A stretch of DNA of 64,000 bases, from the NCBI GenBank assembly GCA_949775045.1, contig OX459104.1, positions 3,807,486-3,871,485 of the forward strand, given 5' to 3'. The position numbers were made by a program, and so were the translations under genes. This DNA comes from Metridium senile. Lineage: Eukaryota; Cnidaria; Anthozoa; Actiniaria; Metridiidae. Every line of letters starts with the position of its first letter. Within the stretch, counting starts at the first letter, position 1. The notes below the pieces were generated by a model that ran no database searches, was not told where the DNA came from, and saw nothing but the letters and a program-made list of their open reading frames with translations. Shown piece after piece: positions 23,171 to 60,247 of the stretch.

Positions 23171-23269
23171 GCTACTCACCGGAATCTTTTGACAATGTTT
23201 CAGTATTTTTAACGTAGATCTTTTTTAAATTCTTTCTGAAGACTTGTATTTAATATTATGTAAACTAAT

Positions 23270-23422
23270 TTAAGCCAGACAGTAGAGACCGATTCTCTTA
23301 CATCTCGTGAATAATCTGTCAAAGGATTTAGCGCCCTTACAGTTGGTACCATCCCACAGGTCAACGTGTCCTTCGGGGAAACTATAGCCGCAATCCTGGA
23401 ACAGGATGATTCCTTTACGCTT
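23270..23422 (-). CDS. Amidase exon 3 (C-terminal, catalytic-His exon, contains stop)
   Basis: A good acceptor (pyrimidine-rich tract then CAACAG) precedes position 23422. The frame then runs 50 codons to TAA at 23272-23270. It opens with KRKGIILF, and the block G-H-V-D-L-W-D-G follows at residues 18-25 of the exon. The His codon is at 23368-23366 and matches the conserved catalytic histidine of the Tae4 family. The exon has four Cys (residues 11, 28, 41, 48). The longer open frame on the same strand over 23209-23553 is another frame and lacks these motifs. An ATTAAA-type polyadenylation hexamer lies at 23254-23249, rather close to the stop, so the real poly(A) site is uncertain. Confidence 0.8.
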   Translation of the reverse strand, partial: KRKGIILFQDCGYSFPEGHVDLWDGTNCKGAKSFDRLFTRCKRIGLYCLA

Positions 23423-26400
23423 CTGTTGAGAAGAAAGAGTTTTTTATTTTGTGTTTGAACGTCAATCTGTTTGATGTTGATTATGATGATATTGATGATG
23501 ATGTTGATGAAGGTAATAATGATTGTAAAGATGGTGTTAATGTTGATGATCATGTTGATTATGATGTTGATGATGATGATATTGATGAAGGTAATGAGGA
23601 TGGTAGTAATGGTAGTAATGATGATGGTAGTAATGGTAGTATTGCTGGTAGCAATGGTAGTAATGATGATGGTAGTAATGATGATGCCTAATGATGATTG
23701 TAGTAATGATGATGGTGATGATGGTAGTAATGGTGATGTTGTTCATGATGATGTTATTGATGATGATGATAATGTTGATGAAGGATGATGTTGATAATGA
23801 AGTTGATGAGGATGCTGATGGTAATGATGATGGTAATAATCATCGTAATGATGATGATGATGTTGAGGGTGATTTTGATATTGTGATGGTAATGATAATG
23901 ATGGTAATGACAAAAATCATGATAATGATGAAAAATGATAAAAGTCATGATAATGACGATGTCAATACCTTGTAGTCGCTGGATTTAGATGACACCAGAT
24001 CAGGTTTACCAAGTAGTTTTTCAAGGTAGCAGGCCATTGTATTTACACGTAAAATGTATTTCTTGTTCGCATCACCCACAGTTCCACACCAACCACACTC
24101 TTTATTCCTTAATTGGATGGAAAATCCTACACAAAAGACATGACAGTATTAGAGCGAATTCGTATAACCCATTTTTAAAATGCAAATGAGAATATGTGTA
24201 AAATAATATGTTAATTAGGTGTGCGTGTTATAATAAATGCTTCAGTGAGTTGCGCTCTCGGCTTCAAGTAATCAAAATAAAACATGATTGACAACGAAAA
24301 CGTTTAAAGAATTACTCGAAACCACTTTTATCAATGTTTTCCACAGTGGCTTGTGGCTCAAAGAAAAAAATGAAAGAAAATAGCTACACGCACACCTCAT
24401 TAGCATGTTAGTTCAAACATATTCTCATTTGCATTTTAAAAGTGGGTTATACGAATACGCTCTATTATAGCGTAAAGGCATGCAACATAAACAGTACTAG
24501 AAATAGTGATATTTTATGCTAATTCTATTGTTTAATTTGTTTAACACTAGCTCTTTACTCCTTAATTGGATGGAAAATCCTACACAAAACATGACAGCAT
24601 TAGCACTACTTTTTTCACGGGTAACGTATACACCTATTTCAATTAACGTTGTCCATCTGGAATGGTTGATCTGAGACCGATAGGAATTGTGGGAGCTCGT
24701 TAAACTGCAAATGCACTATTATAATAACGCTCGAATATTAATGTTTACTTCTGAAATACTGTTATCTGTAATTCAGCACCATTCAAGTGTGATTAAAACA
24801 ATGCATTTGCAGTTTAACGAGCTCCCACAATTCCTATCGGTCTCAGATCAACCATTCCAGATGGACAACGTTAATTGAAATAGGTGTACACTTATTACAA
24901 AAATGGTTGACGAAGTGAATTACTGAATGTAATGGAGACTCAAGAGCGGATACAGAAATTTGTCAGGGGGTGTCCCAATTGCAAATGAAGGGCTCTTAAG
25001 GTGTTTATAGGGGGTGTCCCGTCCCTAAATGACTTAAATAAAATAGGGGTAATAGCTGTTATTACAGTTATATGCAAATGATTTCAAACAATGGATTCAA
25101 ATCGAGGCTTTCGGGCAAACCTATTGTTTTCGCCCGAAAGCCTCGACTTCAACCCATTGCTCAAAATCATTTGCATATAACTGTAATAACAGCTATTGCA
25201 GCACTAGATATCTTAATGGTTGAGCGCTGAAATATAATAACTTTGAACTGAAGAATATTAAGAGGTTATTAACCAAGCGCGAGGTCTGTATGGAAAATAT
25301 CAGACCGAGGTTTTGACAGTAAGGAACGAGCGCAGCGAGGTCCGTACAAAAAAGACTGAGGTCTGATATTTTTCCGGACAGACCGAACAAGCGAGGTTAA
25401 TAAATTGTTTATTATATGGCTTTTTTTCTTAGCGATGTACGAAATCGCAAATATTTTATCGCTGAATCTCTCATTATTGAATGAATAAAAATACATTAAA
25501 CACACACTAAACTGGCTAAAAAGCACTTTGCAGGTATGAAAAGGCAAAACTTTAACAAAATATTTATTGCAATACTTTACAAGTTGTTTTTAATTTCCCT
25601 GGTTAAAAAAAATACGAAAATTGGACCGTTGTCGTGGTAACGGTCTGATATGGGAAAATATCAGATCGGAAATCATCCAATCAGAGCGCGCGTACTATCG
25701 TAGCCATATAATAAAGCTTTTGATAACAAAATATTTCCAATGCTGTTGTAGAGTAACATTATAGCGTTAAAGTGCGGCGCTTATTCGAGGTCGGCGCTTA
25801 TTCGAGGTCGGCGCTTATATACATTTGTTCCATACCTGATTTACAAAGAGCAAAAGACAGTCTTACAGCGCTAGATTTCTCTTTAGCGACGTTAGCCAAG
25901 GCTGTGTTCTTTTGAAGCCATTTAGAATCACAGTCGAGGTAGCTTGGATAGTTCTTGAACAGTCTGCTGAATGATGGCATTCCTGTGGATAATGACAGTA
26001 TTTAGTATTGATGATGATGATGATGATGATAATTGATGATGATGATAATTGATGATGATGATGATGATAATTGATGATGATGATGATGATGATAATTGAT
26101 GATGATGATGATGATGATGATAATTGATGATGATGATAATTGATGATGATGATGATGATAATTGATGATGATGATAATTGATGATGATGATGATGATAAT
26201 TGATGATGATGATGATGATGATAATTGATGATGATGATGATGATGATAATTGATGATGATGATGATAATGATAATTGATGATGATGATGATAATTGATGA
26301 TGATGATGATGATAATTGATGATGATGATAATTGATGATGATGATGATGATAATTGATGATGATGATGATGATGATAATTGATGATGATGATAATTGATG

Positions 26401-26575
26401 ATGATGATGATAATTGATGATGATGATGATAATTGATGATGATAATTGATGATGATGATGATGATGATAATTGATGATGATGATGATGATGATAATTGAT
26501 GATGATGATGATGATGATAATTGATGATGATGATGATGATAATTGATGATGATGATAATTGATGATGATGATAAT

Positions 26576-26606
<31 letters not shown>

Positions 26607-29094
26607 AATTGATGATGATGATGATGATGATAATTGATGATGATGATGATGATGATAATTGATGATGATGATGATGATGATAATTGATGATGATGATAAT
26701 TGATGATGATGATAATGATAATTGATGATGATGATAATTGATGATGATGATGATGATGATAATTGATGATGATGATAATTGATGATGATGATGATGATAA
26801 TTGATGATGATGATGATGATGATAATTGATGATGATGATGATGATGATAATTGATGATGATGATGATGATGATAATTGATGATGATGATGATGATGATAA
26901 TTGATGATGATGATGATAATAGAAAATAATGATAATAATTGATGATGATTAAAATGAATATGACAATTATTTATGACGATTATCATGATAAAGATGATAA
27001 TGATGAAAATGGTGATAAATAATATGATAACTAGTTGGATAATAATGATGATTATTGTGATGTATGATGGGGTTGATGATAATGATATAATAATTGTGAT
27101 GATCATGATGCTAATAATGATAATGATGCTGATTGCGATGATGAAAACGATTGTTTTGATAATAATATACTATTGATGGTAATTACGGTCAGGATGACAA
27201 GGTCATCTATAATGTGGATATTGATTCACAAGATATTCTAGTATTTATCAAACTATACCTTTGTATTTGTGTGACAACATGCGGTTTCTATTACACGTGT
27301 GTCGTTCGATAGCTGGAAATGAATTACATTTTGGAGTTAGTTGAGTACACCTATTTCAAAAGGCAACATATTCATTTATCCATTCATTCATCCATCCATC
27401 CATCCATCTATCCATCCATCCATCCATTCATCCATCCATCCATCCATCCATTTGTAAAATTAACCCATCCATCCTTCCATCCATTTATTCATTCATTTAT
27501 ACACTTGTTAACCCATCCATTCATTAATCCGTCCACTCATTTATCTACCTTCCATTCAAATATCAATTCATCACATTGACACTTTTTTCATCCAACTAAA
27601 TTCATTCATTCAATCACCCATCAAATTATCCATTCATTCATTCAACAATTCATTCATTCATTCATTCACTAATCTATCAATTTATTTATTTGTTGAACCA
27701 TCCATTTATTCATTCAATCGTCCGTAAATTCAATCATCAATCCATTCATTCATTTATCCAAGTTGCCATCCATTCATTCATTCAACAATCCATCTATTTA
27801 TTTGAACATCCATTCATCCATCTATTCAATTATCCATGTTGTCATCCATCCATCCATTCATCCATCCATTTATCCATCCAATCATTCAATCATCCATCCA
27901 TTCATCCAATCATTCAATTTTCCAAGTTTTCATCCATCTATTCATATATAATATTTCTTAGATATCCACTGACCAATTTGACAGCGTTTCCCTTCATAGC
28001 CCCTGGCACAGTAGCATCGATAACCACGTTTTTCTCGTGGATCCTCGCAGCAGCTGCCTCCATTCCTGCATGGCTTGTAGGCACACTTACTGGCCACTCC
28101 TGAAATATCATCAACCAAATAGATTAATTGTCATTTTATCAAGCTCCGGTCTGTTGAAAATCTTGAGAAACTTTTGGGTGCACTTAAATTGAAGCGTGAC
28201 TCTGTTGTGTTTTCTTACATCATGGTCTATATATTTTTTTTTTGGTGGACGTTATTAGTAAGTAAAGGCTATAATAAAAGTACCTTAAATTTAACTGTAA
28301 ACATACATGTCCTTTTTTGTTGCTTTATTACATTGTAATACTTTTCTGTAAAAGAGTAAAAATCTTTCCTTTTCTGAGACAAATGATTCAAAAAAGGAAC
28401 ACTAGTCTTTACCGGTATAGCGAAAACGTATAGTAAACTTAAAGTCAAAATAGCCGAAAACCGTTAAAGTGTCTCACTAGTTTTGCACAGATTATAGGTT
28501 TTAGTAATCTGATTGGCTGGTTAAATATACAATATAATAAAAAAAAAATACAATGTTTTAGGAGTATTATCTAAAGCTCAATGCTCTTACATAAATCAGC
28601 AATACAGTTATTGGAAAAGAAAAGTTTTGAGGTTGGATTTAAATGATCTTAATATTTGGTATTCAGATTTTACTAGCCAACCTTTTTGGAAATAGCTGTA
28701 AATTTGTCAAGATTGTATAGGTTTTAGTGATCTGATTGGCTGATTTAGTATACACTATTCGGTATTCAGATTTTACCAGCCAACCTTTCTGGAAATAGCT
28801 GTAAATGTCTTACCATTTTGACATCGATCTCCTGAGTATCCGCGTCTACATCTACAGAACCAGACATTGTATCTCCTTGGTACATAGCAACGTCCATGGT
28901 TCATACAGGTACCACGCTTACAGTAGTTACATTCTACAAGATCATGATGACAAGATTAAAGATGGGTCAAAAAAGGCCTGCGTCACATCTGGACCTTTCC
29001 TCGGTTATGATGATGGTGATGGTGATGATGATGGTGATGATGATGGTGATGGTGATGATGATGGTGATGATGATGATGATGGTGATGATGATGG

Positions 29095-29125
<31 letters not shown>

Positions 29126-32100
29126 GATGGTGATGCTGACGGTAATGATGATAATGATGGAAATTGTGATAGTGATGATGATTGTGATAACAATAATGAT
29201 GATGAAATTGATGATGATGATAATGACATTGATGGTGAAAATGATGATGATGATGACGACAATGATGATGATTACGATATCGGTGACAATGATGATGATG
29301 ATGATAAAGATGATGAAAATTATGATGGTAAAATTGATGATGATGATGACGACGACAATGATGATGAAAATGATGATGATAATGATCATGATGGTAATGA
29401 CATTGATGATGATGATGATGACGACAATGATGACGCACAATATACCTAAAGATTATGTCACTTACTGCTTTCACATTGATCCCCTTCATATCCTGTTGGA
29501 CATTTACATTCATAGCGATCGATTCTATCATAGCAAGTACCGAAGTTCTTACATGGGTTACTGTCACATAGATTGATGTCTGAAACAAAAACACAACATC
29601 AATAGGTGTGCGTAGTGTTTACAAGTGTTGGTATTGTGATGCTAATTTGCCGACAATTTTAACAATAGATTTTATAACTTTCTTTGTTCTGATAACAATG
29701 GTTGGTTGGCGAAACCATAACAAAATACAAAGACGGACGAAAGTGTTACCGAATGTTGCATGATGGCCGCAAATTCGTGCCAAAAGGGTTAGTTGTATTT
29801 ATTCATAAATATTTACACATAACATTTATCTGTAGGTTATTAAACGTTTGTCTCAAGAAATGTTTGGCAATCCATTCGGTTTTTACTATAAAAAATGACT
29901 ATTTTGCTCGAATTGTTCGTATTGCGCGCAAGCGATTTTTGACAAAAAAAAGACTGCACTTTGAGATTATCTCACTCCTAAACGAGTCTGGTGATTTTTT
30001 ATTTGCTCATTAAACTTGTATGATGACCGTTCTTTACCATGCCAAGTTTGAAGAAAAATCTATGGTTAACTTATTTGCCCGCGAACGTCCTTAAGAGAGC
30101 TCAGAGAACGACTTAAATGACATTTTACACAAATAGATTTGAAAGTTCTAGGATTTTCAGGATTATAGATATGCTTAGTTAAGTCTAGATGGGGTTGATA
30201 ATAATAATGTATGATGAACCAGCTTACGTTTTTCGCAGTTGCTACCAGACCAGCCACGGACACAGGCGCATGCGTATGAGTTAACAGCATCGATGCACGT
30301 CCCTCCATTCCTACAGACACCTGGCTTGCAGTCTTGGATATCTACACGATAACAACAGAGAAGAAAGGTTGAATAACAAGCGTTTAAAATTTAATCTTTG
30401 ACAACAGTGTTGGCACGAATGTGATTAAGTCATTTTAGCACTACTTAAATTCTACTTCTTCTCATGGCAATGTTACTACTACTTGAGGAGGGAGTCATTG
30501 TTTGGTGCTTATGTGTTTGGCCATCGTTTTTTATAGAGTCCGTGTGAATGTCAGATTTGTGTGCTGGATCACTTTACATGTTTTTCGCGCATGCGTTGTC
30601 GTCAGTTGACCGCTGTGCACGATAAGTGTCGATCGCTGTACTTACTTGTTCCACAGTGTGATCCAGTGTATCCTGCTGCACATGTACATCTGTAAGCATT
30701 GACCTTGTCATGACACCGAGCGCCATTCAAACATGGGCTGCTGGCACACTCGTCAATGTCTGGAAAACAATGGCACCATTAGATATAGTGAGGTGTGCAT
30801 GATGATGGTGATGATGATGATGGTGATGATGATTATTGTGATGATGATAATGATGATGGCAATAATGCTGGTATGATGATAATGAGAATAGTGATGATGA
30901 AGATGATGATTATTATGACGATGACAATGGTGATGACAATGGTAATGGCGACAACGACAGCGATGATGATGATGGTGTTGATGATGATGATGATGAAGGT
31001 AATAACGATGATGTTGAATTTGATGATGATATGTTGATTATGATAAAGATGATCATGACATGTTGATAGTAATGATTAATGTGAAAATAATAGTGGTGGC
31101 GACGTTGATGATGATGATGATTATGATGATGATGATAATGTTGATCGATAATAATGCTGGTAATAATGATGATGGCGATGATGATGATGATGATAATAAT
31201 GTTGGTCGATAATATTGCTGGTAATAATGATGATGGTCTCGATGATATTGATGATGATAATGATAATGATACTGATGATTAAGCAACATTATGTCCTAGA
31301 ACTGCAACGAAGATGCTAATGATCTGATAGTGTGTTATCTTAATTAATATGTCGATAATAATGTTGGTAAAAATGATGATGGTAATGACATTGATTATGA
31401 TGATGATGATATTGATGATGATGATGATATTGCTGATGATATTGATGATGGTGATGCTGTGGCCACTTCTTCTAATGATAATTATACTGATGACAATTAA
31501 GCAACATTATGTCCTAGAACTGTAATGAAGATGCTAATGATCAGTAGTGTGTTATCTTACCGGTTTGACAGTTATTTCCTGCATATCCAGGCCTACATGC
31601 ACAACTGTAGCTATTTACCCCATCGGTACAGGTTCCTCCATTCAGACATGGCTGCGACGAACATTCATCAATATCTACAAACAACAATTACTGGTTTAAG
31701 ATTGTTCATGATATCGATAAAATGCATTGGAATTATTCTATTTAGATCGTATTCATATTTGAATATCTTATATATTATATTCAAACAATTCTATCAAAAA
31801 AAATTATCCGTTTTTGTTCACACAGAAAACCATAAAGATAAAGAACAAACAAGTCAATGAACGTCAATCAAAGTTATAAAGTTGCCGCGTGACTTCAGAA
31901 TCTATAAAGATTGACATGGTTTGAGGTGACTGCGTGACAAGATTATTGCGTGATAAGATTATTGCGTGACAAGAGAGATTGTGTGACAAGAGATATTGCG
32001 TGACTTCAAGGATTGTGTTATTCGAGTGTATACGTACCAGTTTCACAGTTATTTCCCGCATATCCTTGTTTGCAGTAACATTTGTAGATCCCGTCAGGCA

Positions 32101-34874
32101 TGTTGATACACACAGCGCCATTTTTACATGGGCCACTGGAACACTCATCAATATCTACGAAATAAGAAAAATAGTCGCTAAATAAGCACATGTGGAAATT
32201 GTAGTGCAATAAAATGAACAAATTATTAACATGCACATGTTTCCAGATGATTTCACTCGCGCACTTCCGGTTAGTATAAGCCAATCAGAAGCATTCCTGT
32301 CGCATCACCAACAGTTCCAAGATGGCGTCGTTCGAAAGAGTTGTTTCCCGTGTTAACTCTCGATAAATACATCCTTAAAATAACTTTACATTAAAAAGTT
32401 CTATGTTACTTGGACAATAAAAGTTCACTGCTGCTCGATCAGGGATAAAAAAGAATAAAAACAAAAACGCAAATGCCTAAAAGTAACCGAAATTGTTTTT
32501 GTCTCGAGGCGCCATTTTGGAACTATTCGTTTTGACAAACAATCATTTGCGCACTTTTGCAGATCACCTGGTTTTACATGTTGTAAACATTAAAATAATT
32601 AAACAACACTGAAACGTTGTTTGGATTAACTACATACCTCTTGAGCAATCGTGCCCAGTCCATCCCGGTCGACACGAGCACTTGTAACTGTCGGGCAGAT
32701 TTGAGCAAGTTGCACCGTTTTTACATGGACGGTTGACACAGTAATTGACATCTTGAATAGAAGAAAGCCACAATTAGTCAGTAAGTCAACCAATCAATTT
32801 ATCAGTCAACCAATCAATCTATCAGTCAGTCAGTCAATCTATAAGTCAGTCAATCAATCTATCAGTCAGTCGATCATTCAAGCAGTCAGCGAGTTAATCA
32901 GTTAATCAATCAATTAATCAAGAATTCAAACAATCAGTCAGCTGATCGATCAGTCAATCAATCAATCAATTAATCAATCAAGCAGTCAATCAATCAATCA
33001 ATTAATCAATCAAGCAGTCAAGCAGTCAGTCAATCAATCTATAAGTCAGTCAATCAATCTATCAGTCAGTCGATCAATCTATCAGCCAGTCGATCAATCT
33101 ATCAGTCAGTCGATCATTCAAGCAGTCAGTGAGTTAATCAGTTAATCAATCAATTAATCAAGAAGTCAAACAATCAGTCAGTTGATCGATCAGTCAATCA
33201 ATAAATCAATTACTCAATCAATCTATCAGTCAGTCAATCAATCTATCAGTCAGTCGATCATTCAAGCAGTCAGTGAGTTAATAAGTTAACCAATCAATTA
33301 ATCAAGAAGTCAAACAATTAGTCAGTCGATCGATCTTTAAATCAATCAATCAAATAATCAATTTAGTCAGTCATGCAGTCAATTAGTCAGTCAGTCAATC
33401 AAGCTACTAGGCTTCTTACTTTGTTCGCAGTTTCTTCCCTTTGTTCCAGTGCGGCAGTCACAAGTGTAAGAGTTAACACCGTCAACACAAGTTCCTCCAT
33501 TTCGACAAGGAAGAGATGCACATTCGTTGATGTCTGTAGACAAGAACAGAAATAAATGAATGAATGAAAGAAAGAATGAATAATAATAAATAATACATAA
33601 TAAAAACCTTTATTTAATCACGGTAACTCTATCAATATAAGTTAAATACAAATACTTAAATTGGTCTACCTAGAGGCCGTACATGTAGTTAAAATTAAAC
33701 TAAAGCTATTAATTTATAAGACAAGCAAATTATGTTGTGTAAGAGTTGAATACCGAGAATGGAGGCAATAAGCCACATAAAGCTGGAGGGACGTAGGCCC
33801 CGAGGGCTTTATTGGCATATTGCCGACATAACTGACTTAATCCACAAATAAAACGAATAACAAAGAAAACCGAGTCAAGTGTGGATTAACAAAGAATGGA
33901 TTGATGAATGGATGAATGAAAGAATGAATGGCAAAAATGACAAAAAATGACTTACTTATCTCGCATCGTTTTAGTCATGTACCCCTCCCCCTCAGTCTTG
34001 TCTGTACTTACTTATCTCGCATCGTTTTAGTCATGTACCCCTCCCCCTCAGTCTTGTCTGTACTTACTTATCTCGCATCGTTTTAGTCATGTCCCCCTCC
34101 CCCTCAGTCTTGTCTGTACTTACTTATCTCGCACCGTTTTAGTCATGTCCCCTCCCCCTCAGTCTTGTCTGTACTTACTTATCTCGCATTGTTTTAGTCA
34201 TGTCCCCCTCCCCCTTAGTCGTGTCTGTACTTACTTATCTCGCATTGTTTTAGTCATGTCCCCCTCCCCCTTAGTCGTGTCTGTACTTACTTATCTCGCA
34301 TTGTTTTAGTCATGTCCCCCTCCCCCTTAGTCGTGTCTGTACTTACTTATCTCGCATTGTTTAGTCATGTCCCCCTCCCCCTCAGTCTTGTCTGTACTTA
34401 CTTAACTAGCATTGTTTAGTCATGTCCCCCTCCCCCTCCCCCTCAGTCTTGTCTGTACTTACTTATCTCGCATTGTTTTAGTCATGTCCCCCTCCCCCTC
34501 AGTCTTCTCTGTACTTACTTATCTCGCATTGTGTTCCTGTATAACCAGCATCGCATGCACAGGTGAATTTATTGACAAGATCAGTGCATTTGCCGTGCTG
34601 ACATGGATTTGGTGCACAATCGTTGATGTCTTAAAGATAAAAGAATTCATGTCAAGATAAATGGATTATGTGGAGAATATCTAGGGAAAATAGCCGAGAT
34701 AAAGTCGATATTCCTCGAGCCTGAGGAGAGTTATTGTTTTAGCATTAAATACATGGGATAAACAGATAAACAAACATATAAATAAATAAATAAATAAATA
34801 GATATATAAATGAATAGTTATATAAATAACTAGATAAATAAATAAATGAACGAATAAATAAACAAATGCTTGAA

Positions 34875-34925
<51 letters not shown>

Positions 34926-37900
34926 ATAGATATATAAATAAATAGATAAATAAAAAAATAAATGTATATATAAATAGATATATGAACGAATAAATAAATA
35001 AATGAATGAATAAACAAATGTTTGAATAAATATATAGATAAATAAATAAATAAATAAATAAATATATAAATAAATAAATAAATGAATAAATAAATAAATA
35101 AATAAAAACATAAATGAATATATGAATATAAATAAATATTAAAAAAAAATATTTATATAAATAAGTATTCTTTGTTAGCTTCGTTCAGTCTTTTGTTGTT
35201 ATATATATTCCAGTTTCGTGTTATATGGCACCGCTGTACTGTTTGTACAAAAGGCGCCTTTAATTGTGCAGGGATAATCTCGATTAAGCGAAAATTGTGA
35301 TTTCTATTGTTAAGAATAGCATTGTTTCGTGGTGTGCTCCGAATTTGTGAATATTTTTACAACAATTGGAGGTTTAGCCTGTGCAAATGCACATTTTGTC
35401 AAATAGAACAGCGGTACTAGATAACATGAAACTGGAGTATTGAGATTATCCCTGTGCAAATGCACCTTTTGTTAAATAGTACAGCGGTACTAGATAACAT
35501 GAAACTGGAGTATTGAGATTATCCCTGTGTATATGCACCTTTTGTCAAATAGAACAGCGGTACTAGATAACATGAAACTGGAGTATTGAGGCTATCCCTG
35601 CGCAAATGCACCTTTTGTCAAATAGAACAGCGGTGCTAGATAACATGAAACTGGAGTATTGAGGCTATCCCTGCGCAAATGCACCTTTTGTCAAATAGAA
35701 CAGCGGTACTAGATAACATGAAACTAGAGTATTGAGGCTATTCCGGATAAGGAGTCAAATTATCAATCTCTCAGTTCTTACTAGTTTCGCAGTGAATTCC
35801 TGCATATCCTCTCTCACAGTAACACGTGTAGGAGTTGATTCTATCTTCACATGTTGATCCGTGCAGACATGGGTTCGAAGCACATTCATTGATGTCTGCA
35901 AATAATAAATAGACTTAGTAAGACTTAGTAAGAACGGAGGAAGAACGGAAAGCAAAAATAAGGAAAGCAAAGGACAGGAAGGAAGGAAGGAAGGAAGGAA
36001 GGAAGGAAGGAAGGAAGGAAGGAAGGAAGGAACGAAAGAAAACAGCAAGGAAAGACGAGAGTGAGTGAGGAGGAAAGCCTAGCAAGAAAGAAAGAATGAC
36101 GTAGGGAAGAGAGAAAAGAAAGAAGTAATTAAGTGTAATAGACTTAGTAAGACTTAGTAAGAACGGAGAAAGAACGGAAAGCAAAAATAAGGAAAGCAAA
36201 GGACAGGAAGGAAGGAAGGATGGAAGGGAAGGATGGAAGGGAAGGAAGGAAGGAAGGAAGGAAGGAAGGAAGGAAGGAAGGAAGGAAGGAAGGAAGGAAG
36301 GAAGGAAGGAAGGAAGGAAGGAAGGAAGGAAGGAACGAAAGAAAACAGCAAGGAAAGACGAGAGTGAGTGAGGAGGAAAGCCTAGCAAGAAAGAAAGAAT
36401 GACGGAGGGAAGGGAGAAAAGAAAGAAGTAACTAAGTGTAGCTCTATGTTGCTTTAAAATACTAACTTTGGGAGCATGTATATCCTGTGAAACCCGCTGC
36501 ACAGGTACAACTATAACGGTTAACAAGGTCATTACATGTTCCACCATTTTGACAAGGCTTGCCCGCACATTCATTGCGATCTGTCAAGCAAAACAAACAA
36601 ACACATCAAAATAGAATAAAAATGTTGAACTTGCAGCCAGGATTCATATTAAAATACAAATTGGTTTGACTCTGGCCTGATTTTGGTTAAATTTATTCAG
36701 ACGTTTCGATCTATACTTAGACCTTCATCAGTGATCGTTACAACTGAGTGATTCGTTATAATGTATCACGCGCAGGTTTAAATATTGTTTAAGTGCGCAC
36801 TGTCCTAGAACTTACAATGATTATATATATTTTAGGTAAAGCAATATGATCATTTCCTGAATTTTTATCAAGTTCAGAGTGCCATGTCTCTAGAAATAAT
36901 CTCTTGTGCCAGTTTCCTTCCCTATCTACAATTTTAGTAGCATTAAGTTTAAACTCGTGGCAAGTTTTGAGGATGGTTGGTCGTTAACTATTACCGTCTT
37001 GTGTTATTGGACTCTGGTTTTTAGAGCTCTTTCTGTTTGGCCATATTACACGTAGTGACAAAATCAGGCCAGAGTCAAACCAATTTGTATTTCAAAATAG
37101 AACACTTAAATAACTTTAATGACAAAATTTCATACATAGCAGCCAAAGGCTGATTTGGGTATGATTGTGAAATATAGATATGTACATAACGTTACTGCTT
37201 CTTATTTTTTCTTATTTCTTTTTCTTCTTAATTCAACCATGCTTCGTGAAGAAAGGGTTTTGACAAAGCTACCATCCAAACAGTGTTTTAACTAAAGAAC
37301 GTACCATGTTCACAGTTGGGCCCATAGTATCCAGGGAAACAATGGCACTGGTATTCATTGATGCCGTCAACACATGTTCCTCCGTGCTTACATGGAGACG
37401 AGGAGCATTCGTCTATATCTGAAACACAACACAAACAAAAAGGATTGAATTTTCTTATTTCACAAGTATTTGTCTGTCCGTCCGTCCGTCCGTCCGTCCG
37501 TCTGTCTGATTGTCTCTCTGTCCGATGTTTTGTCTGTCTGTTCGTCGGCCCTTCGTTTTTCTGCCTGCCTGCCTGTTTTCTCTCCGCTGGTATCTGTCTG
37601 GTATCTGTCTGTCTGTCTGTCTGGTGTCTGCTATCTGTCTGTCTGTCTGTCTGTCTGCTTGTCTGTCTGTCCGTCTGCTTGTCTGTCTGCTTGTCTGTCT
37701 GTCTGTCTGCTTGTCTGTCTGCTTGTCTGTCTGCTTGTCTGTCTGTCTTTCTGTCTGTCTGTCCGTCTGTCTGTCTCTCTGTCTGTCTGATTGTCTCTCT
37801 GTCCGAGGTTTTGTCTGTCTGTTCGTCGGCCCTTCGTTTTTCTGCCTGCCTGCCTGTTTTCTCTCCACTGGTATCTGTCTGTCTGTCTGTCTGTCTTTCT

Positions 37901-40900
37901 GTCAATGTTTACAATCATTCTTACTTGTTTCACAGTTGACTCCCTTAAAGCCTTGTGCGCATGTGCATTGATAGCCATTCACTTGGTCTGTACAGGCTCC
38001 ATTGTGCTTGCATGGGTTTGGATTACAGTCATCGACATCTACAAAACAAAATCATTTAAGCCTGGTTCACACTAGCGGCATAAGCATATAATCATAAGTT
38101 TATCTCCATATGTCATATTCACTATAAATTTAATTTAAATGAAATAATTTTATCTATTTAAGTAATATTTATATATTCGTGTTTATATTTTCTATATGTA
38201 TAGTTCAATATATTTATAATATAATTGTCATACGTTTTTTACATGAGCCTCTCAAACGGCTATGATAGTTGATGATAGTTTAAGGCGTCTCAACTATCAT
38301 TAACTATCATCAACTATCCTGTACGCGCGGTCAAACGGCAAAAACTATCATCGACTATCATGTAAAAATTTGAGCATGTTCAAACTCTATGATAGTCGAT
38401 GATAGTGCATGATAGTTGGTGGTCAAACGCACATGATAGTTGGAACTATCATCAACTATCATCAACTATCATTGCCGTATTTATAATATCATTATACCAA
38501 TTAACTTTTAATTTTTTTTAAAATTAACAATTGATTTTATATATATATATATAATTAATCATCTTCATTCCTTACAATATTTTATATACCTATACTATCA
38601 TAGATCTCTATCATCGAAATTATTGTACATATTGTTATATTATATCTATTATATTAATATATTATACTTCCAATGTATTTTAGACTTATAGTCTACCATG
38701 TTGGATAATAAAGTTATTATTATGTTTGACTGAGGCTTAAAGATGTCTATTGGACAATATGTTTGGCTGAAAAGTTCATGAATTATTTAAGAGTTTGACA
38801 ATGATATAGAACAAACTACATTTCCTACCGTTTTTACAGGTTAAGCCAGTGTAGCCTTTAGCGCACGTGCACGCAAAGCCATCGACACGATCGTGACACG
38901 TGGCACCGTTATAGCATGGATTGGAGTCACACTCGTTGATATCTGATAAGAAATAAAGATATGAACAAGAGCGTTAGTAACTGATATATGATAATAACAG
39001 TGATGATGATGCTGATTGCAATGTTGATGATTAACATACCTTCACTACAGTCTTTTCCTCTGTATCCTGGTTTACATTGACAGCGGAAATCGTTTGGTTT
39101 GTCTGTGCAGACGCCTCTATTCTTACATGGCGAACTTGCACAGTTATCATCGTCTGTAGATCAGACATTATATTAAGCAAACCAATAAAAGAAAACAACC
39201 AACAAAGGACAAACGGACAAATAAACAAACAAACGGACAGACAAACAAACAAACACACAGACAAATAAACAACCAAACAGACAAAGAAACACACAAATAA
39301 ACAAACACACAAATAAACAGACAGACAAACAAACACACGAACAAACGGAGAGACAAATAAACACACAAACAAACGGAGAGACAAATAAACACACAAACAG
39401 ACAAGGAAGATAAACAAGCAACAAAATACACAGACAGACGGACAGACAGATAGACAAACAGACAAACAAACAAACAAACAAACAGAGGGAAAAACAAACA
39501 GACAAACAATTTTTCGCAAAGTTTTAAATAAAACCTCAATAAACCGGAACCCCCGCAAAGCTGGACATTCTACCTGGTCCCGCGGCGTTATCCGGTATGG
39601 AGCGGTTTTCTTTTCTAATTAGAATACTTACCAATCTCACATTTGGATCCACTATATCCAGGCTTGCAGGTACATACGAAACCATTAAGCTTGTCAGTAC
39701 ACTTGACTTCGTTTTGACATTGGTTGGGGTTACAGTCATCAATATCTACAAAGGCAACAATACATCTCAATTATCATTTGATAACCCTTTCGTCTGATAT
39801 AGACATCTTTACCTTCCTTGTTTGTTGTCCCATTTCAGATCACGTGATGCTACCCTTGGGAATTGTTTCTGAATTGTTTCGGAATTCCAGGAATCCAGAA
39901 ACTATGACAAAACTGAATTGGGAATCAGGGATCCAGCATCATTCCGGATTCCATAACGATAGCTTTATAAAATGTAGCCTGAGACGATCTTTTGGAGTTT
40001 TGTGGAAAAGTCGGATTTTGGGGTTACTCAGTAGGCCCCATGTTTCTCGCGGGTATCAAGACAACACAGGAACCCCAAAATCCGTTAGTTTCCCCAAAAC
40101 CCAAAAGAACGCCTGGTTTGCAGGATTCATGATATGAAGTTTGTTGTTATTGTTTTGTGTAAGTTATTATTTTCTATACCTTTATCACAGTTCTTGCCAT
40201 TCCAACCCGCTTCACATTTACAGAAGTAATCGTTAGTAAGATCGGTGCATGAGCCATGAACACACGGTTGAGAAGCACAGTCATCGATGTCTGGAAAAAA
40301 AAACAATCAGGTTTTATTTTATAAACTTATAGTATACTTACAAACGATAGGTAATAAAATGACAGTTGTAACAACGTAAAAAATGTTGACTTTAGTGACG
40401 TTTCTTTTTTTTTACGGTGTTACATCACCTATCACCTATAAGTCGTAAATGGTACTCTGCAGAGTACTAATTCACTTTTTCAGTACAATCCATGTAACAT
40501 TTATTTGTCAACTTACTTATCTCGCAGTCCTTGCCCTTGTAACCATTTTTACACTCGCATCTGTAGTTATTGACAAGGTCTGTACATTTAATGGCATTCT
40601 GACATGGTTTGGGGTCGCATTCGTTCTTATCTAATAAACGGAGAAAAAAAACCGCACTTAAACTTTGATAGTGATGGACGTTAGTTAGGATTCAAAGTGA
40701 TTCTTACTAGTTTCACAATTGTTTCCCTCGTATCCTGCTAGACAGCGACACGTGTATTCGTCTACACCGTCAACACATGAACCGCCATTAAGACACGGGC
40801 TGTTCTTGCAGTCATCGATATCTACAAACAAACAATATACACATATTAGATGTACATAAAAGTAAGGCAGGAATGATAATAGCATAATCATTTCAATGCT

Positions 40901-43900
40901 ACACCACAAGGACCAACCACGCTGGATACACTGCCGGACAGTGTAGTATAGGGCAGGGCGATATGGGATTCCCAGGCGAACACCATAAATGGAAACACAG
41001 AAATGAAGTCAATAATGAATTGAAATGCGTTCGGTGTATAAGTGAAATAGCCTATGGGAGTTAAGCTAATGACAATGATGAAAATCATGATAATGATGAT
41101 GATGCTCATAATGTCCATAATGATTATGTTGTTGTTGTTGTTGATGGTGATGATAACGATGACAAAGATGACGATTATAATGATAATAAAAATGAAGCTC
41201 ATGATAATGATGATGATATTGATGCTGATACTTCTGCTGGTGTTGATGATAATGATGATCGTGATAATGATAATAATAGTGATGATGATGATAATAATAG
41301 TGATGATGATGATAATAATAGTGATGATGATGATGATAATAATAGTGATGATGATGATGATAATGATAGTGATGATGATTATAGTGATGATGAAGATGAT
41401 AATAATAGCGATGATGATGATTATAATGATCGTGATAATAATAATAATAATAACAGTGATGATGATTATAGTGATGATGAATATGATAATATCTATGATA
41501 CTTACTCTTTGAGCAAGTTGGTCCTTCATATCCACGAGCGCATGTGCATTGGAACGAGTTGATACCGTCCACGCAAGTACCGCCATAGCGACAGGGGTTA
41601 GGCGAGCAGTCATCGCGATCTATCAAACATAAAATAATAAACGGGTTTATTTTAGCCAATGATAAATGGGTTTATTTTAGCCAATGATATACCGGTTTAC
41701 TTTAGCCAATGATATGCCGGTTTACTTTAGCCAATGATATGCCGGTTAACTTTAGCCAATGATAAACCGGTTTGCTTTAGCCAATGATATACCGGTTTAC
41801 TTTAGCCAATGATATGCCGGTTCACTTTAGCCAATGATATGCCGGTTAACTTTAGCCAATGATAAACTGGTTTGCTTTAGCCAATGATATACCGGTTTAC
41901 TTTAGCCAATGATATACCGGTTTACTTTAGCCAATGATATGCCGGTTTACTTTAGCCAATGGTAAACAGGTTTACTTTAGCCAATGATATACGGCTTTAC
42001 TTTAGCCAATGGTAAACAAGTTTACTTTAGCCAGTGATATACCGGTTTACTTTAGCCAATGATAAACCGGTTTATTTAAGCCAATGATATACCGGTTTAC
42101 TTAATTTAGCCAATGATAAACAGGTTTACCGTAGCCAATGATAAACAGGTTTACAACAGCCAATGATAAACCGGGTAACTTTTGCCAATGATAAACCGGT
42201 TTACTTTAATAAAAAAAAAACTTACTTAAGCCAATTAAAAACAGCTATTCCTTAGCCAATGATAAACCGGTTTACTTTAGCCAATGATAAACCGTTTTAC
42301 TTTAGCCAATAATAAACCAACAAGTTTCGTTATCAAACGATAAACTAGTCTAAGAATGGTACTTACTCTTGCTGCAGTCACCTCCTTCAAAGCCTTCTCT
42401 GCATGTGCACTTGTAACCATTCACCAGATCGACACAACTAGCTCCGTTCATGCATTTATTGTTCTTGCAATCATTGGTATCTAGAAGAAACAACACGATA
42501 AACTATAGTTAATAGAGAGGAATGGTTAGGAAACGTGGCAAACTTCAAACAACTATCTCTTTGTTCAACTATTTTGAAGTCACTCGACATTGACCGTGCA
42601 CATCAAGTCTCAAAATGGCGAATAGTTGCGGTAAATGTGTTTGAGTTTTGACTTTTATCGACAAAAATCGGTGGTTTGTGGGTCAAATATTGCTTCAGTT
42701 CCGTTGAAATGCATAATTGATATATTTTGCGTTGCTTTATATTTTCGAAAACAAACAGCAAGCACTTATTTAGCTAAAACTAAAATCAAAGGAGATATTT
42801 TAAGAGATACTTCAACTCTTAGCGCTGGGCATATATCTATTAAAGATAATTTGTGAACGTTCCCGAATACACTGCACCGGCGTTATTTTAAGCCGAAAAA
42901 TAATGAAAGTCAGACTCATTAATCGGTTTTCCGAGGATGTAGCATTTACTGTAGACTGATGACCCTCGATATAGTTTGTTTTTAATCTAGAAAAGAGATA
43001 AACGCTAAAGATTCTATTCTATTCTATATTATTCTATTCTATTCTATTCTATTCTATTCTATTCTATTCTATTCTATTCTATTCTATTCTATTCTATTCA
43101 AATCTATTCTATTCCATTCCATTCTATAGTGTCACGTGAAAGTACGGTTCAACACCAACACCGAAACAATAGGCCGGTCCTTTGAAGTTTGCCGGGTTTC
43201 TTAACCATTCCCCTCTATTAACTTCGATGTTAAACAGATAAGTACAACATAACCAAGACAACACCCACAGAGCAATTACATATGTTTGCAATATTTGCTG
43301 CCGTGCGAACGAGCAAGCATGCATTAAACAAGCATGCGCATGCATTCAAGTTATAAATTGTGAAGCTTACACTTTCGTTTTGTTAACACGGTGCTTGTTT
43401 CGTTGATGCATAAAATGCCTGTACAATGGTAAAAATAACATTGTAAAGTATCTTAGATAAAGTCAACGCACTACCTACTACAGCTATTCGCATTATTTAT
43501 TTAATTTCCTATGTAAGTTGGCAATTTGTTACAAAAAGTAAATAAACACTTTATTTATGTATTCGAAAAGTTGTAATTTCTTGTTTTTCCGGTCCTCTAT
43601 ATAATGTTGTGATAGTTAGCTAAAAAGGGAAATGTTCAGGGTTTTTAGCCCATTCTTACAGCAGGGTCTGAATGGGGTTAACAGTTAACTGAGAAACGGC
43701 TAAAAAATTAACTGTTAACTGAGAATTCCGTGTCTTTTTAGGATAACTGTTAGCTGATATTTCTTTGTTTTTAATTAATAAATTTATTAAACTATACTTA
43801 AACACTCCTGCTCGTTTATTAAACTATACATAATGTATTTTAAGGCACCTTCATTTAAAGAATATATATTTTTGTTCCTATTCCAGTTTTATACCACGTA

Positions 43901-46900
43901 ATGTTTACAGTGCGTTGTTCAACGAACAATAAACGATTTCTAAAATATTTCTGGGTGCCCACGGTTTTTTGATTCGCACTGTAATTGGTGATTTATCTAT
44001 TTTATATAGTCATGATTCTATAGATAATGTAAGCACATTCAAATATATTCTGGATAACAACTGACACAAATTTAATTATTTCATAATTAACTTTCAAAAT
44101 AACAAGTTGTTCATCCTTATACATTTTTCTTCATTGACCAATTTATACAGTTTTGTTACTGTTCCAGTTTTTATACCATGTTATGTTGAATTCTTGATTT
44201 ATCTATTTTATATATTCATGATTCCATTGATTATTGTGAAGTTAATAAATTATATTCTTCACTAAATAGTCCTCAAACTCTTACAAATTAAATCATTTTG
44301 TAATATTTTCATGAAACAGTACCACATACACCTACTTGCAGTAAGGTTGTCATACAAAATAGAACATTTGTCACAAAGAAAATAGAACATTTGTGATTTA
44401 GTGCGAAAGGAATTAATTAAAAGACAAAAGAGAGAGTTCAGCTTGAGTGGTCTTCTTTTGTCTTTTAATTAATTCCTATCGTACTAAATCACAAATGTTC
44501 TATTTTCTTTATAACAAATGTATATTTTTGTATGACAACCTTACTGCAAGTAGGTGTAAATAGTCATTGGTTAAGTATGCTCACTCTGTTTTCCACTCTA
44601 CCCGAAATTTAAAAAATGCTTATCTCAAAAATCTCCTCGCCCTATAACTTCCATTCATCTTCATTTAATGATTATCAACAAACTACAAAATCAATATTCC
44701 GACAATTCGCCATTCTATATTTACAATGTACTTGTTGCATGCGTTATGAGGCAGCATGGTGCTATATAGCTACCTATTAGGTACGCTAGTTAAAGCAATA
44801 GTTCAAGCACAAGAAAGAGTGTTTCCATTGAAAACCGAGGCGCAGCTGAGTGTTTGGATAGAAGAGGTAACACTCTTTCAAGTGCTTGATCTGGCTTCTC
44901 AAACCATTAATAATTTTTGAGAAAATTCAAAAGTTGTCCAGATTTTAAATAGCTGATCTTGTAATCTTAGATTTAACATGATTAAGACTTGAAATAAAAG
45001 TCTAAATAATGTTGAAAAATTCTCGTTTTTTTTTCATCCAAAACTTGGATCTAAACAATGTTTTCCCTTCTCGGACTCTTCTTTTTTATGATGTAGTGAT
45101 TTCAATTCCTTTGTTTTGTCCTCATCAATTATAAATGAGTTTGAGAGATATGTTTTCCATTTATATATACAGAGCCGAGAATATTGTCATAATGCATAAA
45201 GAAACTCGGTCCTGTTTGAAAAACTCAAAAGAAGATATTACAGGATGGGGAAGAGGGGGTATCCATCACGAATCACGCGCCGTTTTTCATGATTTCACGG
45301 ATCACGGAGTTACGTAAAGCCTTTTCACGAATCAAAGTTTTAGAACTCGCGATGTTAATTCTGATGTTTCTACCAGGCAACGTGTTGCGCTCAGTGTTAG
45401 ACGTATAATCAATATTAACTGGACCTAACAGATAACCAAAGAATAACACGGATAGCAATAAACGTCTCATTTTACACAACCGTTTATATGAAAAGCTGTC
45501 ACGTTTTCACGGATCACCGATGCTGTAATCACGAGTCACGACAGTGAAAATCTGTAGATCAAGGGTAACGGGCGAAGATGATTTCACGGATCACTGCTTA
45601 AAGGTTTTGCTTTTCACGAATCACAGGCCAAATTTAGAGTGAAACACGGATCACAGAAAACCTCTTCCCCAACCTGATATTATATAGAGACCTTGGTTGA
45701 AGTTATTTCGACTAAGAGTTTGGTCTTAAAAGAGTACTCAAAGAAACTTTCGCTCAAAGTTCACAGTTCCCTGCGCCATCTTGCAAGGTAGCCGGGCCTT
45801 TACATCGAAGCGATATGAACGTTGAGCTTGCAATGACAGAGAGCTTTCAACACCCTGAAGGACAATTATTCATGTGTTTCTATCATTGCAAGCTCAACGT
45901 TCGTCTCGCTGGCGATGCAAAGGCCCGGTTACTATTCTTCTGTCTTCCCTTGAGCCTTTGCGCATACATTCTTGTACGAACGTGAGAGAGGACTGAGGAC
46001 GAGTCAGTTACTTACTTTTGTCGCATTTGTTTCCTTCAAATCCTTCTACACACTGGCACTGGAAGCCATTGACTTTGTCGATACACTTGGCACCATTGGC
46101 ACATGAATTAGGACCACAGTCATCAATGTCTGGAAAAGAAAAGGAAGATAAATTATAAAATAACTATTGAAACTCACACATTTTGACACAGGGAACCAGG
46201 CTTTTGGTTGCTTTGCTTAAAAAAATCGCTTTTGCATATACGCGTACGCGTAGATTTTTCGGGATTCCTGTGGTGCCTAGGATACCTTTGTAAACAGTTT
46301 ACGTAATCTCTGAAATCCGACCTCTGTGAGTGGGACAGTCGTTGGCTTGTAATCAGATCCGGTGGTAATGAACTTACCAACGGATCTGATTACACACCAG
46401 CGACTGTCACGATATGTAGCGCAAATCTCCTAGGCACCACAGGAATCCCGAAAAAGCTATGCTATTGCAAAGCAACCAAAAGCCGGGTTCCCTGTGATTT
46501 TGATTGGATGAGGCGTGTGTTTTATGAGATAGATATGTAGATAGATATGAAAACATTGCAATTCACTGAAAATACGATGCGAATACTTTTGTAATAAAAT
46601 ACCATTATTATTATAATGCGGTTCATACCTGTTTCACAGTTCTTGCCAGTATATCCAACAAGACAGGAGCAGCGATAGCCATTCACCTCGTCGATACATG
46701 TTGCTTGATTCTGACATGGATTGGAGCCACACTCATCGAAGTCTTGGAAAGATTGGGGTAGAGTTAATCGTGATTGGCGTAAAACATAGACGAATTTCAT
46801 AAATGGCCGCCACTAATTATCATAATTTTTAAAATTGATGTTTTAAGAAAAAGAAAGCTATCATATGATCAAATTTGCAAGAAGATATAAGAGTTTGAAA

Positions 46901-47364
46901 AATCAGAAAAACACCAAAACGAGGCATCAATGGCCTCAGCAGAAAATTACATACACATCTCTACTGTTTTATTGAGCATAACTTCTTTGGTATTTTAGCC
47001 AGAGCATCAAAACCTTCCCAACATATTATTTCAGGAAAAATCATTTTCCGGTACATATTATGGTATTTATGAAAGTGGTCTTTGGATTGATTCGAACTCA
47101 TTCTTGTATTGGGCAACAACTCAACAATAAAGATGTTTGATAACAGTGAAATCGTAAACTGACATAACCACAACTGACGAAACATTATTCTTATTAAACT
47201 CTGCTGTTATTAAATAAACATTGGTATCATTTATCGCCATCATTATCATTATTATCGTCACCATCGTCATCAGAATCTTTCTTTGTCATTATTATCATCA
47301 GTTAAGATATCATCATCAATATTAAGATCACCATCATGTTTATAACGATTATCATCGTCGTGGA

Positions 47365-47409
<45 letters not shown>

Positions 47410-49532
47410 CGTTATCATCATAATCACAATCCTCATTATCTTAATCTTCATCGTCCATATCATCATCATCTTCGTTATCATCATCATCTCCGTTATCATC
47501 ATCATCTCCGTTATCATCATCATCTCCGTTATCATCATCATCTCCGTTATCATCATCATCTCCGTTATCATCATCATCTTCGTTATCATCATCATCTCCG
47601 TTATCATCATCATCTTCGTTATCATCATCATCTCCGTTATCATCATCATCTCCGTTATCATCATCATCATCATCTCCGTTATCATCATCATCTCCGTTAT
47701 CATCATCATCTTCGTTATCATCATCATCTCCGTTATCATCATCATCTCCGTTATCATCATCATCTTCGTTATCATCATCATCTCCGTTATCATCATCATC
47801 TCCGTTATCATCATCATCTCCGTTATCATCATCATCTCCGTTATCATCATCATCTCCGTTATTATCATCATCTCCGTTATCATCATCATCTTCGTTATCA
47901 TCATCATCTTCGTTATCATCATCATCTTCGTTATCATCATCATCTCCGTTATCATCATCATCTCCGTTATCATCATCATCTTCGTTATCATCATCATCTT
48001 CGTTATCATCATCATCTCCGTTATCATCATCATCTTCGTTATCATCATCATCTCTGTTATCATCATCATCTCCGTTATCATCATCATCTCTGTTATCATC
48101 ATCATCTTCGTTATCATCATCATCTCCGTTATCATCATCATCTTCGTTATCATCATCATCTCCGTTATCATCATCATCTCCGTTATCATCATCATCATCA
48201 TCTCCGTTATCATCATCATCTCCGTTATCATCATCATCTTCGTTATCATCATCATCTCCGTTATCATCATCATCTCCGTTATCATCATCATCTTCGTTAT
48301 CATCATCATCTCCGTTATCATCATCATCTCCGTTATCATCATCATCTCCGTTATCATCATCATCTCCGTTATCATCATCATCTCCGTTATTATCATCATC
48401 TCCGTTATCATCATCATCTTCGTTATCATCATCATCTTCGTTATCATCATCATCTTCGTTATCATCATCATCTCCGTTATCATCATCATCTCCGTTATCA
48501 TCATCATCTTCGTTATCATCATCATCTTCGTTATCATCATCATCTCCGTTATCATCATCATCTTCGTTATCATCATCATCTCTGTTATCATCATCATCTC
48601 CGTTATCATCATCATCTCTGTTATCATCATCATCTTCGTTATCATCATCATCTCCGTTATCATCATCATCTTCGTTATCATCATCATCTCTGTTATCATC
48701 ATCATCTCCGTTATCATCATCATCTTCGTTATCATCATCATCTTCGTTATCATCATCATCTCCGTTATCATCATCATCTTCGTTATCATCATTATCTTCG
48801 TTATCATCATTATCTTCGTTATCATCATCATCTCCGTTATCATCATCATCTTCGTTATCATCATTATCTCCGTTATCATCATTATCTTCGTTATCATCAT
48901 TATCTTCGTTATCATCATCATCTTCGTTATCATCATCATCTCTGTTATCATCATCATCTTCGTTATCATCATCATCATAATCTGTAACTTACTTGTCTGG
49001 CAGTTAGTACCAACATAGCCAGCAGCGCATGAACAATCGTATCCATTGACCTTGTCTGTACAGCTTCCACCATGTAGACATGGATTTGACGCACACTCGT
49101 TGATGTCTGCAAACAAAAATATCAGCATTATCATCATTATCATCATCCTCATTATTATTATCATTATTTTACAAAAACACAAAATATAGGTTGGAGTTTT
49201 TTTAAGCCGTTCAATAAACTCGTTTATCGTGTTTTATCAGGTCTAAAACTATGTGGCTTCGCCGCGTGGTTTAAATCCTGATAACACACTCCTGCTCGTC
49301 TACTAAACTATATTTAAAACATGGTACAAAAGAAAAAAAAAAAAACACAACAATTTACACAACAACTGAGCCACGAATGTCCTAGTTGTACTAACCTTGA
49401 TCGCAGTTCTTTCCAGTCCATCCGGGTTGACACGTACAGTGGTAAGCGTAGATTTTGTCTGTACAGGAACCATGTACACATGGTTTGGGAGCACATTCGT
49501 TGATATCTACAATATAAAGTATCAACCGTTTA

Positions 49533-49571
<39 letters not shown>

Positions 49572-53843: not shown

Positions 53844-53890
<47 letters not shown>

Positions 53891-53983
53891 CACAAGTAAA
53901 TAATTAAGCCGGTAAGTAAGTAAGTACACAAGTAAATAATTAAGCCGGTAAGTAAGTAAGTACACAAGTAAATAATTAAGCCG

Positions 53984-54060
<77 letters not shown>

Positions 54061-60000: not shown

Positions 60001-60216
60001 TCTTATATCGTTAAATACAGTTTCATGGTCGTTATCGTTATAATTAAAATTTTCATTATCCTTACTATTATCATTATACTTATCCTTATCATTATCGTTA
60101 TTATTATCGTTATCGTTATTGTTATCGTTATGATTATCGTTATCACTATTGTAATCTTCTTATATCGTTATATACAGTTATAGTTTTCACGGTCGTTATC
60201 GTTATCAGTAATATTT

Positions 60217-60247
<31 letters not shown>

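What the first reader, a model, noticed from the sequence alone, without database searches (positions are those of the whole stretch)
23270..28099. EGF-repeat array fused in frame to a Tae4/Dae4-type peptidoglycan amidase domain
Three short exons, hidden in a frame not covered by the longest open frames, encode in order the landmarks of the Tae4 amidase family: an M-P-S-F start, the helix with A-V-R-L-S-F at the nucleophile, G-F-S-I across an exon border, YILRVN, GKPDLV, K-G-I-I and G-H-V-D-L-W-D-G. EGF-1 ends in phase 1, and amidase exon 1 starts with two bases that complete its codon. Tae4 proteins are bacterial type VI effectors, and transferred relatives (Dae) are known in animals as antibacterial proteins. 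A large extracellular EGF scaffold carrying such a domain would be a new architecture as far as I know, perhaps tethering an antibacterial or microbe-sensing module to a surface or matrix.
Basis: partly seen in the sequence, partly recalled or inferred. Interest (0 to 1): 0.95.

Follow-up and report, generated by a model that had tools for sequence, protein, structure and literature searches.

The report
EGF-repeat protein with bacterial amidase-like end
An animal-type gene for a very long chain of EGF modules appears to end in a domain derived from a bacterial cell-wall-cutting weapon, but the residue that does the cutting has been replaced, so the domain may now hold or sense bacteria rather than cut them.

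Summary
Three minus-strand exons (25982-25836, 24126-23969, 23422-23270) splice into a 151-aa domain matching Pfam Tae4 (PF14113, E 4.7e-17) and solved bacterial Tae4 chains. A profile of 120 bacterial relatives finds two of the three exons in a six-frame scan of the window (E 1.3e-6, 1.9e-6; reversed control best 0.52). Upstream lie 42 EGF exons; joined in phase they give one 1752-aa open frame. No signal-peptide-like start exon was found in the introns searched. A fusion is therefore likely, but no transcript was available.

It is Cys in 119 of 120 bacterial relatives (one gapped). The catalytic His is kept, and an Asp sits in the H-x-D position used by some Tae4 enzymes. The domain has 9 cysteines against 2-6 in those relatives.

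Best reading: a horizontally acquired Tae4 domain turned into a probably non-catalytic, disulfide-rich, bacterial-wall-binding tip on an EGF stalk. The function is inferred. The organism was not identified and its genome could not be searched.

The parts
29466..63280 (-). 40 EGF exons (63280-63167 the first seen, 29579-29466 the 40th), 111-117 bp, acidic, 240 Cys in 40 repeats; the array may go on beyond the window
   Evidence: pattern scan and exon borders; Pfam EGF and EGF_CA on the first seven repeats; charge and Cys count
28814..28933 (-). EGF exon 41, 120 bp, basic (net +9), 7 Cys
27974..28099 (-). EGF exon 42, 126 bp, basic (net +6), 7 Cys; ends in phase 1
27259..27312 (-). possible 54-bp microexon, phase 1-1, open, one Cys; unproven
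   Evidence: splice scores within the EGF range but low (7 of 41 and 2 of 41 as low); Pfam Tae4 match kept when it is included
25836..25982 (-). Tae4-like exon T1: N-terminus and nucleophile helix
   Evidence: weak alone
25870..25872 (-). codon of Ser37, at the nucleophile Cys column of Tae4
23969..24126 (-). Tae4-like exon T2 (YILRVN, GKPDLV)
   Evidence: bacterial profile E 1.9e-6 in the whole-window scan
23270..23422 (-). Tae4-like exon T3 (KGII, GHVDLWDG) with stop TAA
   Evidence: bacterial profile E 1.3e-6 in the whole-window scan
23366..23368 (-). codon of His120, at the catalytic His column
23360..23362 (-). codon of Asp122, H-x-D position of the second Tae4 triad layout
23249..23254 (-). 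ATTAAA, possible poly(A) signal shortly after the stop
   Evidence: pattern match only

Best explanation
The gene encodes an extracellular protein of at least 42 EGF repeats ending in a Tae4-derived domain of bacterial origin. The domain keeps the family's sequence signature, the catalytic His and an H-x-D Asp, but has lost the nucleophile Cys and gained cysteines fit for disulfides outside the cell. Most likely it no longer cuts peptidoglycan; together with the two basic EGFs before it, it binds the bacterial wall or its peptides as a recognition or tethering tip on an EGF stalk, as non-catalytic peptidoglycan recognition proteins do beside their amidase cousins. Shown: domain, exons, phase-compatible single open frame, residue states, composition. 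Inferred: one transcript, secretion, loss of activity, peptidoglycan binding, direction of transfer.
For: Domain. One frame of 1752 aa over 45 exons without an internal stop. Nucleophile: Ser where 119 of 120 relatives have Cys and one is gapped, and where 65 of 71 bacterial loci have Cys and 6 are gapped; Lys where 119 of 120 have Asn two places before. Removing the Cys abolished toxicity in Salmonella Tae4 and Serratia Ssp1/Ssp2, and in Ssp1 left the structure essentially unchanged (passages), so a domain without it can keep its fold. Extracellular signs: 9 Cys against 2-6, median 3, in 120 relatives. Basic last two EGFs beside 40 acidic ones. No leader exon in the introns searched.
Against: No transcript, expression, structure or binding data. 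T1, which carries the Ser, is the weakest of the three exons and its acceptor is weak. The basic charge of the domain is not new: bacterial relatives have a median pI of 9.3 against 9.4. His and an Asp are kept, which a pure binder would not need. No relative carrying both parts was found, though those databases returned bacterial names only. Single-sequence error or a rare allele at Ser37 cannot be excluded.
Confidence: 0.45

Rival explanations
1. The fusion is real, but the domain is a structural relic: a decaying or merely cysteine-rich C-terminal cap with no bacterial ligand.
For: Nucleophile lost and the residues around it changed; many new cysteines; no orthologue available to show constraint.
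Against: All three exons are open with usable splice sites; the His and the H-x-D Asp stay, and the match is strong over residues 38-130.
Confidence: 0.22
2. Two genes: the EGF array ends earlier, and the Tae4-like exons, alone or with the two basic EGFs, form a separate Dae4-like gene.
For: T1 has an ATG two bases after its acceptor. The last two EGFs differ from the other 40 in charge and Cys number. The intron before T1 is about 2 kb and filled with repeats and holds two TATA-like words.
Against: Phase match across EGF 42/T1. Only 7 open codons lie upstream of T1's ATG before an in-frame stop. In the four introns scanned, ATG exons with a phase-1 donor were three short, non-hydrophobic ones. 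A cysteine-rich domain argues for secretion, hence for a leader.
Confidence: 0.15
3. An active enzyme with Ser as nucleophile: a Ser37-His120-Asp122 triad that still cuts peptidoglycan peptides.
For: His is kept and Asp lies two residues after it, as in the Serratia and Agrobacterium triads (passages).
Against: None of the 119 alignable relatives has Ser there; the neighbouring Asn is Lys. A Ser is usually a poor stand-in in a thiolate enzyme (general knowledge).
Confidence: 0.13

Closest known systems
Tae4, bacterial type VI amidase effector (PF14113; PDB 4j30, 4jur, 4hff, 4hfk, 4bi3, 6ijf)
   Same: Profile match over residues 38-130; catalytic His; H-x-D Asp as in Serratia Ssp1 and Agrobacterium Tae4
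   Different: Nucleophile Cys replaced by Ser; 9 Cys; introns; EGF array upstream; no T6SS setting. Overall sequence scores nearer the first-layout group, while the Asp layout is that of the second
Dae proteins of animals (Dae2 of ticks; Dae4 recalled)
   Same: Tae-derived domain in an intron-bearing eukaryotic gene
   Different: Dae2 acts as an antibacterial effector (passages); here the nucleophile is missing and the domain follows a long EGF array. No Dae4 sequence was available for comparison
HGT-chimeras of arthropods, e.g. the Penaeus amidase / growth-factor-receptor protein (PMC13389597)
   Same: A bacterial-derived amidase-type domain in one open frame with an animal extracellular module (section 9 read)
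   Different: There the catalytic residues are intact and transcripts were confirmed for many; here the nucleophile is lost, the partner is an EGF array, and no transcript is known. Whether that amidase is related to Tae4 was not seen
Peptidoglycan recognition proteins (PGRPs)
   Same: Working analogy: amidase and non-catalytic forms of one fold, the latter binding peptidoglycan (PMC8124813, abstract start and passages)
   Different: Zinc-dependent and a different fold; analogy only, no kinship

Membership tests
Tae4 domain (PF14113), by sequence | Match above the curated cut-off | tested here: met
   62.7 bits against 27
Tae4 / Dae4 amidase, as an enzyme | Nucleophile Cys | tested here: not met
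   Ser37; Cys in 119 of 120 relatives, one gapped
Tae4 / Dae4 amidase, as an enzyme | Catalytic His | tested here: met
   His120; His in 120 of 120
Tae4 / Dae4 amidase, as an enzyme | Third residue Asp, 11 or 2 residues after His | tested here: met
   Asp122 at +2 (second layout); Gly at the first-layout column, where 119 of 120 have Asp
Tae4 / Dae4 amidase, as an enzyme | Cleaves peptidoglycan peptides | not testable with these tools
   needs a bench assay
Tae4 / Dae4 amidase, as an enzyme | Papain-like NlpC/P60 fold | not tested
   no structure predicted: a spliced protein falls outside the stated rule of structure prediction
Dae proteins of animals | Secreted (signal peptide) | tested here: inconclusive
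   no leader exon near T1; the N-terminus of the EGF gene lies outside the window
EGF-repeat protein | Tandem EGF domains | tested here: met
   Pfam on the first seven repeats and on the last three
HGT-chimera | Animal and transferred parts in one open frame | tested here: met
   1752 aa without an internal stop, by spliced translation
HGT-chimera | One chimeric transcript | not testable with these tools
   no RNA data
HGT-chimera | Transferred part nested in a bacterial clade | not tested
   no tree built; no animal Tae4 sequences were obtained

The most novel reading that the evidence does not exclude
An animal has turned a bacterial interbacterial weapon into a non-cutting peptidoglycan receptor by losing its nucleophile, adding a disulfide set, and mounting it through two basic EGFs on an acidic EGF stalk of 40 or more repeats: a recognition-type branch of the Tae4 fold, convergent with non-catalytic PGRPs.
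Probability: 0.35. Interest if true: 0.82.

Novelty: new variant of a known kind. Interest (0 to 1): 0.62.

Why it matters
Transferred Tae domains in animals are known as antibacterial effectors (tick Dae2; passages). A copy without its nucleophile, built into a long EGF protein, would show a second fate: from weapon to receptor or anchor. It can be tested directly with one recombinant domain and purified peptidoglycan, and the paired features (lost nucleophile, new cysteines, EGF neighbours) give a search signature for more cases.

Tried and rejected
Chance match: rejected by the six-frame scan with a reversed control. Bacterial contamination: rejected, because the domain is split by introns rich in the same kinds of microsatellite as the rest of the gene. 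Start exon for a separate secreted gene: looked for in four introns (donor score above -1, 19-300 bases, phase 1), none with a hydrophobic stretch.

Relatives: none for the domain alone (5 candidates, 0 passed) or within long proteins (64 candidates, 0 passed); none in genome contigs by the window protein alone (76 stretches, 0). The names shown are bacterial and the genome collection is bacterial and archaeal, so these blanks say little about animals. Bacterial relatives came only through an alignment with one bacterial Tae4 (288 proteins, the best 120 listed and used; 69 loci of 108 stretches, found by patterns typical of the first triad layout), so the residue counts are one-sided.

Papers: ten searches ran. 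None of the listings showed an EGF-Tae4 protein by title or abstract start; several were capped (20 of 812, 20 of 231, 5 of 5,179, 12 of 144). PMC10435454, which holds both 'Tae4' and 'EGF', was not opened. PMC13342648 and PMC4241558 hold none of the Tae or amidase terms asked for in their main texts. The original Dae paper is not held.

Own genome: the genome search did not complete. A first extraction from bacterial loci lost 30 of 71 to a poor pattern and was redone with a profile. One search was a mistake: a wrong-frame peptide was searched; it found nothing and is not used. The Rfam search of 22178-64000 gave one tRNA-like match.
Full report
What is there. On the minus strand three exons, T1 (25982-25836), T2 (24126-23969) and T3 (23422-23270), splice into 151 residues and a stop. 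The product matches Pfam Tae4 with E 4.7e-17 and the solved Tae4 chains 4j30, 4jur and 4hff with E near 6e-15. NCBIfam gave nothing at 1e-3. As a test against picking exons to fit, a profile of 120 bacterial relatives was run over all six frames of the window: it reported only T3 (1.3e-6) and T2 (1.9e-6), while the reversed sequence gave 0.52 at best. Those relatives had been gathered with an alignment that included the window protein, and the window row was removed before the profile was built, so the test is not wholly blind. T1 is too short and divergent to stand alone. Scored in register with its donor it was first of 1060 on the minus strand, but the reversed controls came close (20.7 and 18.6 against 21.7). 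T1 is tied in by its place, by the nucleophile-helix motif, and by its junction with T2, which makes the Gly found in 119 of 120 relatives; any T1 ending in G would give that Gly.

The scaffold. Upstream on the same strand lie 42 EGF exons from 63280 to 27974, 111 to 126 bp long and each a multiple of three. The script looked only for borders in phase 1, so the shared phase is partly by construction; what speaks for it is that all 41 repeats it was run on gave such borders, most with a donor close to GTAAGT, and that the whole joins without a stop. One acceptor was first misplaced (59459) and set to 59414. The array may continue beyond the window. Joined, EGFs and T1-T3 form one frame of 1752 residues. 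The first seven repeats match Pfam EGF and EGF_CA; the last three EGFs plus the domain match EGF and Tae4 together. With an intron-only splice model the junction sites lie within the EGF range, T1's acceptor and T2's donor being weak. With exon bases included, T1's and the last EGF's acceptors fell below that range.

One gene or two. Four introns (30227-29580, 29465-28934, 28813-28100, 27973-25983) were scanned for ATG exons with a phase-1 donor; three short ones turned up, none hydrophobic. Only 7 open codons precede T1's ATG. With the phase match this favours one gene. Against it, the last two EGFs are basic (+9, +6) with 7 cysteines each, while the other 40 carry net -70 and 240 cysteines in all. 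I read the two basic EGFs and the Tae4-like domain as a C-terminal module, perhaps once a gene of its own. Only transcripts can decide.

The catalytic residues. Bacterial Tae4 enzymes use Cys, His and Asp (passages of PMC3695027, PMC3759425, PMC6277958, PMC3852654). Two layouts exist: Asp 11 residues after His (Salmonella, Enterobacter) or 2 after His (Serratia Ssp1, Agrobacterium). The window has His120 and Asp122, the second layout, and Gly at the first-layout column; the 6ijf chain printed shows the same H-x-D. Yet the window protein alone finds first-layout chains and not 4bi3 or 6ijf at E up to 1, so its overall likeness and its Asp layout point different ways. The Cys column holds Ser37. 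Of 120 bacterial relatives 119 have Cys and one is gapped; of 71 bacterial loci 65 have Cys and 6 are gapped. Asn two places before, present in 119 of 120, is Lys. Cys-to-Ala abolished toxicity in Salmonella Tae4 and in Serratia Ssp1 and Ssp2, and in Ssp1 it left the structure essentially unchanged. In the 120 relatives the column at Asp122 is Thr in 120 of 120, so they are first-layout proteins and the sample is one-sided.

Signs of life outside the cell. The domain has 9 cysteines without the catalytic one; the 120 relatives have 2 to 6, median 3. It is basic (net +13, pI 9.4, 152 residues with the junction Gly), but so are the relatives (pI 5.9 to 10.1, median 9.3): the charge is inherited. 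A 54-bp microexon at 27312-27259 is possible and would add one cysteine; Pfam Tae4 still matches with it (6.1e-17).

Mechanism. My best reading is that the domain binds peptidoglycan or its fragments without cutting and is shown at the C-terminal tip of a long EGF stalk. Shown: domain, exons, single frame, residues, composition. Inferred: one message, secretion (the N-terminus lies outside the window), loss of activity, binding, bacterial origin by transfer (no tree was built). The parallel with PGRPs, which come in amidase and non-catalytic peptidoglycan-binding forms (PMC8124813, abstract start and passages), is an analogy. Rivals: a relic, a separate short gene, a Ser-based enzyme.

Known or new. 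For tick Dae2 I saw passages; Dae4 in animals is recalled, the original paper not being held. Fusions of animal genes with transferred bacterial domains were catalogued in arthropods, among them a shrimp protein joining an amidase with intact catalytic residues to a growth-factor-receptor-like part (PMC13389597: passages; section 9). The sequence collections used gave bacterial relatives only, so absence elsewhere in animals is not shown. I call it a new variant of a known kind. By sequence it carries a Tae4 domain; it should not be filed as a Tae4 or Dae4 amidase, since the nucleophile test failed.

Limits. The organism was not identified; 'animal' rests on the EGF array and spliced introns (general knowledge). 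The window's genome could not be searched. No structure was predicted and no selection test was possible.

Noticed in passing
1-22177: A 37-bp satellite, about 600 copies (TRF unit of 74 bp, 299.8 copies, 96% matches), ending about 1.1 kb past the stop of the Tae4-like exon T3.
   Followed up: no
24551-24589 and 24098-24136: A 39-nt stretch holding the T2 acceptor and the first bases of T2 is repeated 453 bp upstream at 97% identity, on the far side of an inverted-repeat element (arms 24147-24228 and 24386-24467); a possible decoy acceptor.
   Followed up: partly
24626-24891: Long inverted repeat, 111-nt arms, 94% complementary, 44 nt apart, in the T1-T2 intron; looks like a small mobile element.
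   Followed up: no
27974-28933: The last two EGFs are basic with 7 cysteines each, unlike the 40 acidic ones upstream.
   Followed up: partly
52108-52186: tRNA-like match to Rfam RF00005 on the + strand, 32.5 bits against a cut-off of 29, E 0.0043; may be a tRNA-derived repeat.
   Followed up: no
29466-63280: 39 matches in the array fit an Asn-hydroxylation-type EGF motif and 37 a calcium-binding start (patterns recalled, counted).
   Followed up: no
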